DNA from: Candidatus Bathyarchaeota archaeon
Lineage (GTDB): Archaea; Thermoproteota; Bathyarchaeia; Bathyarchaeales; Bathycorpusculaceae
Length of the DNA stretch: 64,000 nucleotides
Assembly (NCBI GenBank): GCA_026014745.1
Contig: JAOZHS010000002.1
Coordinates: 682,001-746,000 of the forward strand
Direction: 5' to 3'
Shown piece after piece: positions 24,592 to 30,015 of the stretch. The notes beneath the pieces were generated by a model. It did not search any database. It worked only from the letters and a program-made list of their open reading frames with translations, and was not told where the DNA came from. How positions within the stretch are numbered: position 1 is the first letter of the stretch; each line of letters opens with the position of its first letter. The translations under genes and the position numbers were made by a program.

Positions 24592-25248
24592 TCATCTTGC
24601 CATTTCACGACAGGACTCAGCGCATCGGCGACAGACGCTGGCACATTCCTTCATGAAATCGTCTTCGAAGCGATCGCAGGTGTCGGCGCATTCATCGCAG
24701 ATGTCAGCGCAGATGCCGCAGGTTTGAGGATAATAGGTTGAGTTGCGAAGCATAAAATCCGCGTTGGTGCTGCATATTTTGGCGCAGTCCAGCAGGAGGT
24801 TTAGATGCTCGTATTCCGCATGTCGCCGCCCCATCGTTAAGCATCTTATGGCTGTTTCCGTGCAACTCTGATAACAATCCAAGGAATCTTTTAGGCACTC
24901 TCGGACTTCGTCGCTTGCCATAGCTTCAGAGCTTTGCATCCGCTCCAGTTCCTCCATGGACCCAGTGATTCTACCCGCAATGGGAGATTGCTTCTCCGGC
25001 GTCCAACCTTCCTCCTCGTCTTCTTGGGTATGCGTTTCGCCTTCGGCGGATTCGTCTGTGTAGTTTTTTTCGTCTACGCTACGCATATCGCGGGCTTCAA
25101 CTTCGCCTAAGTCGGGTTTCCGACGGTCTAAGGGTTCTATGTCATGTCTATAGGAATCTGGCACGTCTTCACCTCCAAACCAAAAAGCATACTTGCCGTT
25201 CAAAAAATGCTGTTTGCTAATTTTGGGGATTTGAGATTGAATATACAA
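24592..25248 (-). CDS. Cys-rich four-helix-bundle protein (copper-storage-like, DUF326)
   Basis: About 218 residues. The C-terminal 110 residues carry regularly spaced cysteines along helices (CLKDSLDCYQSC, CLTM, LDCAKIC, CGICADICDECADTC and CASVCRRCAESC), the pattern of DUF326 and the Csp copper-storage four-helix bundles, whose cysteines face the core and bind many Cu(I) ions. The N-terminal half is acidic and low-complexity (DESAEGETHTQEDEEEGW) and looks disordered. There is no signal peptide, so it would be cytosolic. No copper ATPase or regulator is nearby. Metal binding is inferred from the pattern. Confidence 0.75.
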   Translation of the reverse strand: MYIQSQIPKISKQHFLNGKYAFWFGGEDVPDSYRHDIEPLDRRKPDLGEVEARDMRSVDEKNYTDESAEGETHTQEDEEEGWTPEKQSPIAGRITGSMEELERMQSSEAMASDEVRECLKDSLDCYQSCTETAIRCLTMGRRHAEYEHLNLLLDCAKICSTNADFMLRNSTYYPQTCGICADICDECADTCDRFEDDFMKECASVCRRCAESCREMAR

Positions 25249-25367: not shown

Positions 25368-26261
25368 TCATTTGCGGGGAAGTAACTCGTTGAGTTCAAA
25401 GCTTGCGCCGCAAAGCACACTGTCGGCTCCGCCATAATAAACGATGACTTCGTCGTCGATTTGGACGTTGCCACAGCTAAACACCACGTTGGGAACGTCG
25501 CCGACGCATTCGTAGCCTTCACAGGGTGTTAGGATAGGCTGTTCTGAGCGGTAGAGAATTTTTTCTGGGTTAGATTTTTCCAGCAACGCCACACCCAGCG
25601 AGTAGTGCTTCTTTTCGTCTACACCGTGATAGATGAATAGGTAGCCTTCGTTGAGTTCGATGGGGGTTCCTGCAGCGCCGATTTTGTGGCTATCCCACAT
25701 CCGATCTCGGGGCTCCATGATGGATTTGAAGCCATGCCATTTTTTGAAGTCATCGGAATAAGCGATGCAGATACTGGGTTCAATACGGTGAAACATAACG
25801 TAGTTGCTATCTACTTTGCCAGGCAGGATGACTGCGTCTTTGTTACGTACTCCTGGGAAGGGTAGGATACGGTCAGACCAGTTCCAGTTACGTTTCACGA
25901 AGTCTTTGAGGTTAATGGAGGTTAAGGCAATTTGGAAGATAACGGGAAAATCGTGGTTTCGATATGCGGTGTATGCCATGTAGCATTGGTCGCCAATTAT
26001 GGATAATCGGGGGTCTTCGCAGCCGTCGCGTTCAGCGTGGTGAATTGGGTTAAAAATTGGCGTGTCAAAGCGTTCTTTTATAGTGTAACCATCATTTGAG
26101 GTTGCTAGGCCCAGTCTTGAAACGTTGTCGTCGCCCATAGCTCGGTAAACAATGTGGACCAAGCCCTCACTATACACTGCTGCAGCGTTGAAAACGGATC
26201 TGGATTCCCAGAAATTTGTTTTAATTGGCTCTAATATGGGATTATGTTTAAAGCGTTTCAT
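25368..26261 (-). CDS. GH130-family mannoside phosphorylase, copy A
   Basis: About 297 residues, a five-bladed propeller of family GH130. Family enzymes phosphorolyse beta-mannosides to mannose 1-phosphate. Motifs include NPIL at the start, VYRAMGDD near 38, RDGCEDPRLS (79-88) holding the Asp83 assigned as general acid in studied members, NKDAVILPGK near 141, FHRIEPSI near 158, and YYGGADSV near the end. A longer frame reaches 26363, but the ATG at 26261 has a GAGGGG ribosome site and matches the N-terminus of copy B (29116-30015), which is strikingly similar. It diverges from the GT4 gene over about 150 bp. Confidence 0.88.
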   Translation of the reverse strand: MKRFKHNPILEPIKTNFWESRSVFNAAAVYSEGLVHIVYRAMGDDNVSRLGLATSNDGYTIKERFDTPIFNPIHHAERDGCEDPRLSIIGDQCYMAYTAYRNHDFPVIFQIALTSINLKDFVKRNWNWSDRILPFPGVRNKDAVILPGKVDSNYVMFHRIEPSICIAYSDDFKKWHGFKSIMEPRDRMWDSHKIGAAGTPIELNEGYLFIYHGVDEKKHYSLGVALLEKSNPEKILYRSEQPILTPCEGYECVGDVPNVVFSCGNVQIDDEVIVYYGGADSVLCGASFELNELLPRK

Positions 26262-26365
26262 AAGCCCCTCTCCCTTCGACTGCAAGACTGTACAAAGGCA
26301 AAATATAAACATCATGCAAAAGTCCATCAAAAAACGCCCCTGTGACTGGCATAGTACAATCACAT

Positions 26366-26378
26366 GCGCTTAAAGCGC
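26366..26378. promoter_or_regulatory. Palindrome between GH130-A and GT4 genes
   Basis: GCGCTT-A-AAGCGC is a perfect 6-bp inverted repeat in the divergent promoter of the mannoside cluster. AATATATTTC just downstream is a TATA candidate for the GT4 gene. It is a candidate operator, supported by position only. Confidence 0.35.
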
Positions 26379-26409
26379 CCCAAACCTCAATATATTTCGT
26401 GACTAGCTG

Positions 26410-27621
26410 TTGGCTAAGTATATTCTGGGCACACCTTCCTTGACTACTGTCAAAGAAGTTGCCTATGTGAGCACCTACCCGCCGAGGAAATGTGGGATTG
26501 CTACCTTTACAGCAGATCTCGTTAACTCGATAAGCAGGCTCCATAAACTTCAAGACCAAAAAGTCATATCAATCGATGGACGCAGAATATTTAAACCCAT
26601 TAATGATGGTGTCCAACATAAAATCGGAAGAGACACTCAAGAAGATTACGCCTTAATGGCGGAGTTCCTCAACCAAACCGACATTAACGTTGTTAACGTC
26701 CAGCATGAATTCGGGATTTTCGGGGGCGAATCAGGCGCTTACATTTGTGATTTTATGGATAGACTCAACAAACCAGTCGCCACCACGCTCCACACGGTTT
26801 TGCCTGATTTTGAGGAAAAAACCCGAGAGGTATTTGACAGAATCGTGAAGCGAAGCGCCGCCTTAATCGTTTTAAACGCTACCGAACGGTCTCTACTCAA
26901 AAAGTATGGCGTTCCAGACCGCAAAGTCAAGATTATTCCACACGGGTGCCCTGACCTGCCATTGACCTCTTCAGCTAAGGTTAAGCCATATTTAGGCTTG
27001 AAAAACAAAGTTGTGCTTTCGACGTTTGGGCTGCTGAGTCGAGGCAAAGGCATCGAATATGTCATAAAAGCATTGCCAGAACTCGTCAAAAAAGACCCGC
27101 GCATCGTGTATTACGTGTTGGGGGTTACGCATCCTCAGGTGAAAAGCTACGAGGGAGAAGCCTACCGCAATATGCTTCTGCGTATGGCAAAAGACCTTGG
27201 GCTTCGCGGACACGTAAAATTCCTTAACCGATTTCTCTCTAAACCTGAACTCTACAATTATCTGCAGGCAACCGACGTATACATAACACCCTACCTGTCA
27301 CCTAACCAAGTGAGCAGTGGCACCTTATCCTACGCTTTAGCCGCGGGAAAAGCCGTGGTGTCCACACCATACTTCCATGCAAAAGAGGCACTGGGGGAAG
27401 GAAGAGGTGTCTTCTGTAAATTTAGAGACCCTGAATCTATCGCCGACTGCATCTCAAAGATTATTGATGATGAGCAATTCCGAACCTCACTAGAACATAG
27501 GGCATATCGTTATAGCCGCAAGTTTAGGTGGCCATTGGTGGCAGAGAAATACCTCAGGCTTTTTGATAGCCTTTCTAGTCAGGCAGTAAGGGAGGAGTGG
27601 CCATTAGGCTTCCACCTCTAA
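26410..27621 (+). CDS. GT4-family glycosyltransferase of the mannoside cluster
   Basis: About 403 residues, GT-B fold. The N-terminal domain opens with STYPPRKCGIATFTADL, typical of a GT4 subgroup often found with GH130 genes, and the donor domain has KVKIIPHG, LSTFGLLSRGKGIEYVIKA and ATDVYITPYL. Where most GT4 enzymes have E-x7-E, this one has YLSPNQVSSGTLSYALAAG, without clear Glu residues, so catalysis may be altered. The start is TTG at 26410. The last 25 bp overlap the next gene. The donor is likely a nucleotide sugar (GDP-mannose is a guess). Confidence 0.85.
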   Translation: MAKYILGTPSLTTVKEVAYVSTYPPRKCGIATFTADLVNSISRLHKLQDQKVISIDGRRIFKPINDGVQHKIGRDTQEDYALMAEFLNQTDINVVNVQHEFGIFGGESGAYICDFMDRLNKPVATTLHTVLPDFEEKTREVFDRIVKRSAALIVLNATERSLLKKYGVPDRKVKIIPHGCPDLPLTSSAKVKPYLGLKNKVVLSTFGLLSRGKGIEYVIKALPELVKKDPRIVYYVLGVTHPQVKSYEGEAYRNMLLRMAKDLGLRGHVKFLNRFLSKPELYNYLQATDVYITPYLSPNQVSSGTLSYALAAGKAVVSTPYFHAKEALGEGRGVFCKFRDPESIADCISKIIDDEQFRTSLEHRAYRYSRKFRWPLVAEKYLRLFDSLSSQAVREEWPLGFHL

Positions 27622-28670
27622 AAATTGATTATCTCAAATCCTTCACCGACGACACTGGGCTTTTTCAACATGCCAAATACTGCATCCCCAAACGCACCGA
27701 GGGCTACACCACCGACGACAATGCACGAGCTCTAATCGCAGCTGTCAAATATCACCGTCTAAAAAACGACCCCGAAATGACCCGACTATCAAGCATCTAT
27801 CTAGCGTTTCTTAATCATATGCAGAGACCCGACGGCAACTTTCACAATTACCTCGGCTACGAACGCAGCTACCTAGACGTGGATGGTTCACCTGAATGTA
27901 TTGGACGCGCAGTTTGGGCTTGTGGAACCGCCATTAACTCTAATTTGCCGATGGACATGAGGTTGGTGGCGAAAGACATTTTTGACCGCTCTTTTCCATG
28001 GGTTTGGAAGTCAACGTCGCTGCGGTTTTATGCGTTTGCGCTGCTGGGGCTCTTCGAGTATTATTTGGCTGCACCTCACGATGACCTACGAGCGGAAGCG
28101 GAAAAAATAGGTGACAGCCTAATGAAGCAATACCGCAATGAAGCCTCAAATGATTGGCACTGGTTTGAACCCTTCCTCACCTACGATAACAGTCGCCTCA
28201 CCCACGCACTTTACGTGGCTGCCCTGTTAACGCAGAAAGAGAAGTTCCTCGGAGTCGCTGTAGAGTCTATGAATTTTCTGTTGCGGACACAGATGATTGA
28301 GGGGGTCTATATGCCTGTGGGTAATGATGGCTGGTATAAACGGGGCGAAAAACGGGCGTTATATGATCAGCAGCCTCTGGAAGCCGCGGCCATGGTGGAA
28401 GCCGCAGTAGACGCCCACTATACTACGGGAGAGGGACGCTACATTGAGGTTGCAGAGAAAGCGTTTGGGTGGTATTTGGGGAGGAACAGTCGAGGCGTTA
28501 TGCTTTACAATCCGCAGACAGGCGGATGCTACGATGGCTTAAGTGTTGATGCTGTGAACAAAAATCAGGGCGGCGAATCATCCATTTCGTATCTTTTGGC
28601 CAGGCTTAAGCTTGAGGAGTTGCGGCGGGGGGTTTGGAAACAAAAGATGCCCCCGCTAAGAGGAGGATAA
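27597..28670 (+). CDS. Alpha/alpha-barrel glycosidase-like protein
   Basis: About 357 residues, mostly paired helices as in six-hairpin glycosidases and epimerases. Notable stretches are RTEGYTTDDNARALIAAVKY near residue 33, DGNFHNYLGYE near 77, DWHWFEPFLTYDNSRLTHAL near 182 and QQPLEAAAMVEA near 260. Conserved Asp and Glu residues in these could be catalytic, but the enzyme activity is not known to me. The GTG start at 27597 overlaps the GT4 gene, so the two are translationally linked. Partner genes of this type usually accompany GT4/GH130 sets; trimming or branching of a mannan is a guess. Confidence 0.75.
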   Translation: MAIRLPPLKIDYLKSFTDDTGLFQHAKYCIPKRTEGYTTDDNARALIAAVKYHRLKNDPEMTRLSSIYLAFLNHMQRPDGNFHNYLGYERSYLDVDGSPECIGRAVWACGTAINSNLPMDMRLVAKDIFDRSFPWVWKSTSLRFYAFALLGLFEYYLAAPHDDLRAEAEKIGDSLMKQYRNEASNDWHWFEPFLTYDNSRLTHALYVAALLTQKEKFLGVAVESMNFLLRTQMIEGVYMPVGNDGWYKRGEKRALYDQQPLEAAAMVEAAVDAHYTTGEGRYIEVAEKAFGWYLGRNSRGVMLYNPQTGGCYDGLSVDAVNKNQGGESSISYLLARLKLEELRRGVWKQKMPPLRGG

Positions 28671-28692
28671 CAGTTTTTTGTGGGATTGAATT

Positions 28693-29106
28693 ATGTGTGA
28701 ACCTTTGCTTAAAATTCGGGACATAATGTGCAAAGATATAGTTACCGCCAAAGAAGACCTAACCATCCAAGAAGCCATACAACTTCTATACGAACGCCAC
28801 GTGGGCTCAATCATAGTTGTGGATGATGAGCATAAATGCATCGGAATCTTCACCGAACGCGACGCCATCCGCATAGCCGCAAACAAGGTCTCCACTAAAG
28901 AAAGACTTAGCACAGTAATGAGTAGGCGCGTCGTGACAATCTCCGTTGAGAGCTCCTTCGAGGAAGCCAAACACATCGTACTCGCTCACGACATCCGCCA
29001 CCTACCCGTCATAGACCAAGCTGGAAAACTGGTAGGACTATTTTCAGTGAGGGCATTTTTTGATGAGATTTTAAGTTTGAAGACGCTGCCGTCAACCGAA
29101 ACGTAG
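28693..29106 (+). CDS. CBS-domain pair protein
   Basis: About 137 residues: two CBS motifs forming one Bateman module (IRDIMCKDIVTAKEDL..., HVGSIIVVDDEHKCIGIFTERDA, then MSRRVVTISVESS... and IRHLPVIDQAGKLVGLFSVRA). Such modules bind adenosine nucleotides and switch partner enzymes. It sits 22 bp after the alpha/alpha-barrel gene and 9 bp before GH130 copy B, so it is an internal member of the cluster. It may tie mannoside turnover to energy charge; that is inference. Confidence 0.85.
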   Translation: MCEPLLKIRDIMCKDIVTAKEDLTIQEAIQLLYERHVGSIIVVDDEHKCIGIFTERDAIRIAANKVSTKERLSTVMSRRVVTISVESSFEEAKHIVLAHDIRHLPVIDQAGKLVGLFSVRAFFDEILSLKTLPSTET

Positions 29107-29115
29107 GAACCGCCT

Positions 29116-30015
29116 ATGCAACGCTACTCTGGAAACCCTATTCTTACACCGTTAGTTGAGCATCCTTGGGAATCCAGAGAAGTCTTCAATCCAGCCGTCG
29201 TGTACCTAAACGGCAAAGTCCATATACTTTACCGCGCGATGGGCAACGATGGGATTTCAAGAATCGGCTACGCAACGAGCAGAGATGGCTACAAAATCGA
29301 TGAACGCCTCTCGGAGCCAGTTTATTTTCCTAGGGCGCAAAGCGAAAGAGATGGATGTGAAGACCCCCGCTTAAGCGAAGTTGAGGGGAACCTCATCATG
29401 GCATATACGGCGCTGCGCAATTACAGTCACTTACAGGTTTACCAGATAGCCTTAACCACCATATCAACCAACGATTTTTTAGCTAGAAAATGGAACTGGA
29501 CCCACAGCCGTTTACCGTTCCCCAACATCCGTAACAAGGACGCCGTCATCTTCCCAGAAAAAGTAAAAGGACGCTACGTGATGCTTCACCGCATTGAACC
29601 AGACATCTGCATCGGATACTCCTATGATATGAAACATTGGTGCGACATCAAATCAATCATGATGCCCAAACCAAAGGGGTGGGATAACTGGAAAATCGGC
29701 GTCGCCGGTCCACCCATCAAAATCAACGAGGGCTGGCTTCTCATATATCACGGCATCGACGTTGACCGCCACTACTCCTTGGGCGTTGCGCTGCTTGATA
29801 AGGACAAACCGGACCGAGTAATCTACCGCTCCAAAGAACACCTCATAGCACCCAAAGAAGACTACGAACGCTTCGGCAAAGTCCCCAACGTTGTATTCAG
29901 CTGCGGCAACGTCATCATAGGCAACGAATTCTTCCTCTACTATGGCGGAGCAGACAGCGTCGTATGCGTCGCCACCATGCCGCTAGATGATTTGCTCGCC
30001 CAAATCCACCGATAA
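29116..30015 (+). CDS. GH130-family mannoside phosphorylase, copy B
   Basis: About 299 residues, a paralogue of 25368-26261. EDPR with Asp83 lies at the same position (82-85). KDAVIFP (141-147), HRIEP (158-162), YHG (211-213) and YYGGAD (275-280) are all kept, so both copies look active. Family chemistry is phosphorolysis of beta-mannosides or, in reverse, transfer from mannose 1-phosphate. The linkage cannot be read from the sequence. The gene ends the rightward cluster GT4-barrel-CBS-GH130 and converges with the Sua5 gene 3 bp on. Confidence 0.88.
   Translation: MQRYSGNPILTPLVEHPWESREVFNPAVVYLNGKVHILYRAMGNDGISRIGYATSRDGYKIDERLSEPVYFPRAQSERDGCEDPRLSEVEGNLIMAYTALRNYSHLQVYQIALTTISTNDFLARKWNWTHSRLPFPNIRNKDAVIFPEKVKGRYVMLHRIEPDICIGYSYDMKHWCDIKSIMMPKPKGWDNWKIGVAGPPIKINEGWLLIYHGIDVDRHYSLGVALLDKDKPDRVIYRSKEHLIAPKEDYERFGKVPNVVFSCGNVIIGNEFFLYYGGADSVVCVATMPLDDLLAQIHR

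What the first reader, a model, noticed from the sequence alone, without database searches (positions are those of the whole stretch)
25368..30015. Candidate archaeal mannan storage or turnover cluster with two GH130 phosphorylases, GT4, alpha/alpha barrel and a CBS sensor
Seen: GH130 copy A diverges from an overlapping run GT4 - alpha/alpha-barrel protein - CBS pair - GH130 copy B. Both GH130 copies keep EDPR (Asp83), HRIEP and YYGGAD. Known: GH130 enzymes reversibly phosphorolyse beta-mannosides, and in Leishmania GH130-related proteins build and degrade the beta-1,2-mannan reserve mannogen. Inference: the GT4 primes or extends a mannan, the two phosphorylases build and mobilise it as mannose 1-phosphate, and the CBS module ties turnover to adenylate charge. 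A self-contained, energy-sensing mannan reserve in archaea would be new to me.
Basis: partly seen in the sequence, partly recalled or inferred. Interest (0 to 1): 0.75.

Follow-up and report, generated by a model that had tools for sequence, protein, structure and literature searches.

The report
Widespread GT4–alpha/alpha–GH130 mannoside gene cluster
A Bathyarchaeial archaeon carries a conserved, apparently intracellular gene cluster predicted to make and recycle beta-1,2-linked mannose chains; its core is shared with many bacteria and uncharacterised as far as I could find, but whether the sugar is an energy reserve is not shown.

Summary
The five genes are real and correctly placed. The window belongs to a Bathyarchaeial genome of the genus of Ca. 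Bathycorpusculum acetigenerans. Both GH130 copies (57% identical, the only two in the genome) carry the published phosphorylase signature (three basic residues) and the beta-1,2-mannoside signature. Their closest solved relatives are the Thermoanaerobacter beta-1,2-mannoside phosphorylases. The order GT4–alpha/alpha–CBS–GH130 recurs in at least 16 same-genus genomes, in other families and in one Asgard MAG. Within the genus the alpha/alpha gene and GH130 are gained or lost together (19 both, 8 neither, 1 exception). The core is not archaeal: in many bacterial phyla GT4 and the alpha/alpha protein are fused and sit beside GH130, sometimes with GDP-mannose genes. The GT4 lacks the canonical donor-site residues (EX7E reads Q-x7-Y), and the alpha/alpha protein belongs to no Pfam family. 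One relative fuses CBS to GT4, which supports CBS control. A conserved 24-bp palindrome between the divergent genes recurs across the genome. Mannoside turnover is well supported. 'Energy reserve' and 'adenylate sensing' remain inference: GT4 enzymes are a retaining family, so this one is unlikely to build a beta chain, and alpha-glucan-type genes are also present.

The parts
25368..26261 (-). GH130 copy A, predicted beta-1,2-mannoside phosphorylase (297 aa from ATG 26261)
   Evidence: PF04041 195 bits; best solved relatives 9fj8 and 7fip; signature N/E/D/K/R/K/H/D complete
26262..26409 (.). Shared intergenic region between the divergent GH130A and GT4 operon
   Evidence: aligned in 13 same-genus clusters; blocks outside the palindrome include ATATAAA-like and GCTTAAA-like boxes
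26341..26364 (.). 24-bp operator-like palindrome TGTGAYTG-N8-CARTCACA
   Evidence: conserved in 13 of 13 aligned clusters; 24 sites genome-wide against 2 in the reversed-pattern control at up to 2 mismatches
26410..27621 (+). GT4-type GT-B glycosyltransferase with a non-canonical donor site (Q300-x7-Y308 in place of EX7E; L208 in place of Arg; K213 kept)
   Evidence: Pfam PF00534; alignment to MshA and PimA; motif in about 100 homologues; AlphaFold2 pLDDT 86.7
27597..28670 (+). (alpha/alpha)6-barrel protein of an unnamed family, likely a glycoside-processing enzyme
   Evidence: AlphaFold2 pLDDT 93.7; nearest solved fold 7tem, then AGE-type epimerases, GH9 and GH76; no Pfam family over cut-off
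28693..29106 (+). Stand-alone CBS-domain pair, predicted regulator of the pathway
   Evidence: PF00571, two stretches; GxFTERD motif invariant in CBS1; fused to GT4 in locus L075
29116..30015 (+). GH130 copy B, predicted beta-1,2-mannoside phosphorylase
   Evidence: PF04041 208 bits; best solved relatives 9fj8 and 7fip; signature complete

Best explanation
A cytosolic mannoside-turnover module. Two GH130 inverting phosphorylases reversibly interconvert alpha-mannose 1-phosphate and beta-1,2-mannosyl caps or short oligomannan (signature shown; activity inferred). The beta-mannosyl residues sit on an unknown glycoside that is formed or primed by the GT4-type enzyme and trimmed or released by its partner (alpha/alpha)6 protein; fusion of these two in bacteria shows they act as a unit, while their reactions are inferred. 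Man1P feeds or drains GDP-mannose through the guanylyltransferase-like and mutase genes elsewhere in the genome (inferred). The CBS pair binds a nucleotide and gates the GT4 step (fusion shown; ligand and effect inferred). GH130A and the GT4 operon are co-regulated from one palindromic operator (site conservation shown; factor unknown). The product may be a reserve, a stress-protective oligosaccharide or a cap on a glycoconjugate; the data do not choose.
For: Phosphorylase basic triad and beta-1,2 Lys and Glu in both GH130. Nearest solved relatives are beta-1,2-mannoside phosphorylases. No signal peptide or membrane span in any of the five by a simple hydropathy scan, and no recurrent transporter family among neighbours. 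Conserved order. Alpha/alpha gene and GH130 co-occur within the genus: 19 both, 8 neither, 1 alpha/alpha only. GT4-alpha/alpha fusions next to GH130 in bacteria, with mannose-1-phosphate guanylyltransferase-like genes (5 loci) or a GT4-mannose-6-phosphate-isomerase cupin family (7 loci) recurring beside them. CBS-GT4 fusion. Own genome has a man1P-guanylyltransferase-like gene followed by a GlmM/PMM-type mutase. Thermoanaerobacter has a comparable pair of GH130 with GT4 and guanylyltransferase.
Against: No activity data. Both GH130 score below the NCBIfam equivalog cut-off for beta-1,2-mannobiose phosphorylase (294 and 300 against 450) and differ from the Thermoanaerobacter enzymes in loops between conserved motifs, so the acceptor may differ. 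The GT4 donor site is non-canonical. Co-loss and operator co-occurrence are confounded by shared ancestry. Genome-wide operator sites lie next to many unrelated genes.
Confidence: 0.55

Rival explanations
1. Mannogen-like energy reserve: a beta-1,2-mannan is built and mobilised as Man1P by the two phosphorylases, with the CBS module gating turnover by adenylate charge.
For: Two beta-1,2-type phosphorylases as in mannogen metabolism; CBS1 has a canonical adenosine-type motif; CBS-GT4 fusion; no uptake genes in the cluster.
Against: No polymer shown. GT4 is a retaining family and cannot readily extend a beta chain. A GH57 gene beside weak glycogen-synthase-type hits suggests alpha-glucan metabolism in the same genome. 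Many cluster-bearing relatives have a single clustered GH130.
Confidence: 0.2
2. Salvage of imported beta-mannosides: the GH130s phosphorolyse external mannan fragments, as in gut bacteria and as Bathyarchaeial GH130 has been annotated.
For: Characterised bacterial GH130 are mostly catabolic.
Against: No transporter or secreted glycosidase family recurs among neighbours; no signal peptides; a glycosyltransferase is the constant partner; the beta-1,4 signature is absent from both copies.
Confidence: 0.12
3. Maturation of a surface glycan or glycolipid: GT4 adds a residue to a lipid- or protein-linked glycan and GH130 and the alpha/alpha enzyme edit beta-mannose caps.
For: GT4 families often make glycoconjugates; MshA and PimA are among the nearest solved relatives; one operator-like site lies just upstream of an rmlA-type gene followed by dTDP-sugar genes and preceded by a flippase-like gene.
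Against: No flippase, polymerase or membrane protein in the conserved cluster; reversible phosphorylases in the cytosol suit soluble glycosides better; no membrane-anchoring helix in GT4 by hydropathy.
Confidence: 0.18

Closest known systems
Thermoanaerobacter Teth514_1788/1789 cluster (beta-1,2-oligomannan and beta-1,2-mannobiose phosphorylases; PMC4264767)
   Same: Pair of GH130 of the same subgroup, with a GT4 gene and a mannose-1-phosphate guanylyltransferase in the cluster; nearest characterised rows in the tree
   Different: That cluster has ABC transporter genes and a GH5 hydrolase and no reported alpha/alpha or CBS partner; Bathyarchaeial GH130 form their own clade and score under the equivalog cut-off
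Leishmania mannogen metabolism (GT108 dual transferases/phosphorylases; PMC8950772, PMC3290622)
   Same: Five-bladed propeller phosphorylase chemistry on beta-1,2-mannose via Man1P
   Different: GT108 is a separate CAZy family; mannogen uses a mannose cyclic-phosphate primer and GDP-mannose-dependent beta-mannosyltransferases; no polymer is known here
Bacterial GT4-alpha/alpha fusion + GH130 loci (Verrucomicrobia, Planctomycetes, Acidobacteria, Chloroflexi, Rhizobium, Sphingobium, Ilyobacter and others)
   Same: Same three families, same non-canonical GT4 motif, adjacent genes
   Different: GT4 and alpha/alpha fused, GH130 often long (about 450-500 aa) or of another subtype, no CBS; I found no paper on it
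YPO2471 (PDB 7tem)
   Same: Only sequence-detectable solved relative of the alpha/alpha protein, top fold match, sharing DD and GAES motifs
   Different: Deposited as 'putative exported protein' without assigned function; 16% identity

Membership tests
GH130 (CAZy/Pfam PF04041) | Family profile over curated cut-off | tested here: met
   195 and 208 bits against cut-off 26
GH130 mannoside phosphorylase | Invariant Asn, Asp (catalytic), Asp for -1 mannose; three basic residues for phosphate instead of the Glu pair of mannosidases | tested here: met
   N27/D85/D282 with R161/K195/H214 in A; N25/D83/D280 with R159/K193/H212 in B; assignment of which basic residues bind phosphate is by alignment
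GH130 beta-1,2-mannoside specificity | Lys equivalent to BT3780 Lys199 and Glu next to the catalytic Asp (Tyr in beta-1,4 enzymes) | tested here: met
   K143/K141 in NKDA and E84/E82 in EDPR; beta-1,4 reference TM1225 has R and Y
beta-1,2-mannobiose phosphorylase equivalog (NF052550) | Score over curated equivalog cut-off | tested here: not met
   294.3 and 299.6 bits against 450
Canonical GT4 glycosyltransferase | GT4 profile over cut-off and GT-B fold | tested here: met
   PF00534 71.7 against 26.4; MshA and PimA among top fold matches
Canonical GT4 glycosyltransferase | EX7E motif and Arg/Lys donor-phosphate pair | tested here: not met
   E to Q300, E to Y308, R to L208; only K213 kept; nearly invariant in about 100 homologues
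GH127 | PF07944 over curated cut-off | tested here: not met
   20.6 against 24.9 bits
AGE-type 2-epimerase | (alpha/alpha)6 fold of that group | tested here: met
   cellobiose 2-epimerases TM 0.68-0.73
AGE-type 2-epimerase | Conserved catalytic histidines (general knowledge) | tested here: not met
   no invariant His in 43 homologues, only H25 nearly invariant; invariant D18, D40, D41, D313, E327 instead
Mannogen-type energy reserve | Accumulating intracellular beta-1,2-mannan mobilised as Man1P | not testable with these tools
   needs culture or enrichment chemistry
Adenylate-binding CBS module | G-h-x-T/S-x-x-D motif | tested here: inconclusive
   CBS1 has G51-I-F-T-E-R-D57 in all 10; CBS2 has S-V-R without the Asp; ligand not testable

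The most novel reading that the evidence does not exclude
GT4 (Q-x7-Y type), the unnamed (alpha/alpha)6 enzyme and beta-1,2-type GH130 form an undescribed, prokaryote-wide intracellular beta-mannoside cycle with a glycosyltransferase that uses an unusual donor or donor mode; Bathyarchaeia placed it under CBS control and a lineage-specific regulon as a mannogen-like reserve or stress solute, independently of Leishmania.
Probability: 0.22. Interest if true: 0.8.

Novelty: new variant of a known kind. Interest (0 to 1): 0.55.

Why it matters
GH130 enzymes are usually read as digesters of dietary, fungal or host mannan, and Bathyarchaeial GH130 has been annotated that way. Here they sit in a conserved, apparently cytosolic cluster with a biosynthetic-type enzyme, in archaea and in many bacterial phyla, together with a widespread (alpha/alpha)6 family that Pfam does not cover and a GT4 group lacking the textbook donor site. 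If the product is found, it would reveal a common but overlooked soluble beta-mannoside in prokaryotes. Cultured carriers (for example Rhizobium, Novosphingobium, Ilyobacter) make that testable.

Tried and rejected
Archaeal-only origin: rejected, core is widespread in bacteria. Beta-1,4-mannan digestion: rejected for these copies on signature residues. 2-epimerase role for the alpha/alpha protein: considered from fold, disfavoured because no His pair is conserved. RNA element in the locus: none. Sigma-70-type promoter and terminator scans: uninformative for an archaeon. PF05693-type glycogen synthase in own genome: none, but weak GT5-type hits lie beside a GH57 gene. Two literature queries aimed at the GT4-GH130 arrangement returned only the Thermoanaerobacter paper and reviews as relevant. 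The first intergenic extraction matched one locus only and was redone.
Full report
What is there. All five proteins look cytosolic: the highest 19-residue hydropathy window is 1.25, and none has a hydrophobic N-terminus. The window sits in a 2.7-Mb genome with exactly two GH130 genes, both in this cluster. The organism is Bathyarchaeial: genome G004, listed as the same genus, has a contig of the same length as the Ca. Bathycorpusculum acetigenerans contig WQVG01000002.1.

GH130. The copies are 57% identical. In the tree copy A falls in a six-row clade and copy B in a twelve-row clade of same-genus sequences, inside a Bathyarchaeial group; the nearest characterised rows are the Thermoanaerobacter enzymes, though deep joins in this quick tree are uncertain. 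Published criteria separate phosphorylases (three basic residues) from mannosidases (Glu pair), and beta-1,2 (Lys, plus Glu beside the catalytic Asp) from beta-1,4 enzymes. Both copies meet the phosphorylase and the beta-1,2 criteria, as do 7fip, 9fj8 and Lin0857, while TM1225 does not meet the beta-1,2 ones. They miss the curated equivalog cut-off and differ in loops, so exact acceptor and chain length stay open.

GT4. The protein is a GT-B enzyme by profile and fold. Against MshA and PimA, both Glu of EX7E are replaced (Q300, Y308) and the Arg of the phosphate-binding pair is Leu; only the Lys remains. The same pattern, Q-x-x-SGTL-x-Y with FGL-x3-KG, runs through about 100 homologues of archaea and bacteria with few exceptions. 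GT4 enzymes are retaining (general knowledge), so this one is unlikely to lengthen a beta-linked chain from an alpha-linked donor.

Alpha/alpha protein. AlphaFold2 gives a confident (alpha/alpha)6 barrel (pLDDT 93.7). The best solved match is the unassigned YPO2471, followed by cellobiose 2-epimerases, GH9 and GH76 proteins. Across 43 relatives the invariant polar residues are D18, Q24, D40, D41, N42, R44, R143, D313, N323 and E327; no His is invariant. A glycosidase-type enzyme is my inference. Even in bacterial GT4 fusions Pfam leaves this half unassigned.

Neighbourhood. GT4-alpha/alpha-CBS-GH130 recurs in at least 16 same-genus genomes, and in other families and an Asgard-labelled MAG; GH130A stands divergently upstream in 13 same-genus loci. 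Among same-genus genomes, 19 have both the alpha/alpha gene and GH130, 8 have neither, and one (G017) has alpha/alpha without GH130; relatedness inflates this. In bacteria the usual form is a GT4-alpha/alpha fusion followed by GH130 (29 loci), also on Rhizobium, Novosphingobium and Ilyobacter plasmids. Apart from these two families, recurrent neighbours include a regulator-like family (9 loci), a GT4 with a mannose-6-phosphate-isomerase cupin in the one member scanned (7 loci) and a family whose scanned member is mannose-1-phosphate guanylyltransferase-like (5 loci, one Bathyarchaeial). The own genome has such a guanylyltransferase-like gene next to a GlmM/PMM-type mutase.

CBS. The pair is kept in the Bathyarchaeial clusters, and in L075 a CBS pair is fused to the N-terminus of the GT4, upstream of alpha/alpha and GH130. 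This is the best evidence that the CBS module acts on the glycosyl-transfer step. The first domain has an intact GxxTxxD motif, the second does not. The ligand is unknown.

Shared operator. The 148-bp gap between GH130A and GT4 holds TGTGACTG-GCATAGTA-CAATCACA (26341-26364), conserved in 13 aligned clusters. In the own genome the pattern has 24 sites at up to 2 mismatches, against 2 for the reversed pattern. The nine further loci first examined have the site between predicted genes, often divergent ones; neighbours include a universal stress protein, a CBS protein, an alcohol dehydrogenase, a CDGSH/cytochrome-b5 pair and a DUF308 protein. Among the weaker sites two fall inside predicted short ORFs. 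At up to 1 mismatch, 19 of 20 same-genus genomes with the alpha/alpha gene have 3-24 sites, and 1 of 8 without it has any; control counts are 0 at that threshold in the 31 genomes. The cluster thus seems to belong to a broad, possibly stress-related regulon. The binding factor is unknown, and subclade structure could explain part of the pattern.

Judgement. That this is a beta-mannoside turnover module is well supported by sequence. The direction of flux, the product and the regulator's ligand are not. I put the energy-reserve reading at about 0.2.

Noticed in passing
window 26341-26364; own genome C1, C2, C3: A 24-bp palindrome TGTGAYTG-N8-CARTCACA recurs genome-wide, mostly between genes, and in most same-genus genomes that carry the cluster; binding factor unknown.
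   Followed up: partly
L075:872-2518: Natural fusion of a CBS pair to the N-terminus of the GT4 in another Bathyarchaeial MAG.
   Followed up: yes
L060:463-2382 and similar frames in genomes G049, G070, G079, G112, G137, G170, G181, G187: Other genomes of the phylum have single open frames of about 640-670 aa with two GH130 matches in tandem, often beside a third GH130 gene.
   Followed up: no
L124:9087-10436 and homologues in six other loci: GT4 fused to a mannose-6-phosphate-isomerase-type cupin, next to GT4-alpha/alpha fusions and a distinct GH130 clade with R in place of the beta-1,2 Lys.
   Followed up: no
own genome C1:344678-347659: GH57 gene beside weak GT5-type (glycogen synthase-like) hits, hinting at alpha-glucan metabolism.
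   Followed up: no
PDB 7tem (YPO2471): Solved structure without assigned function that is a distant member of the alpha/alpha family.
   Followed up: no
window 24592-25248: Cysteine-rich predicted protein with repeated C-x-x-C spacing downstream of GH130A; not conserved with the cluster as far as examined.
   Followed up: no
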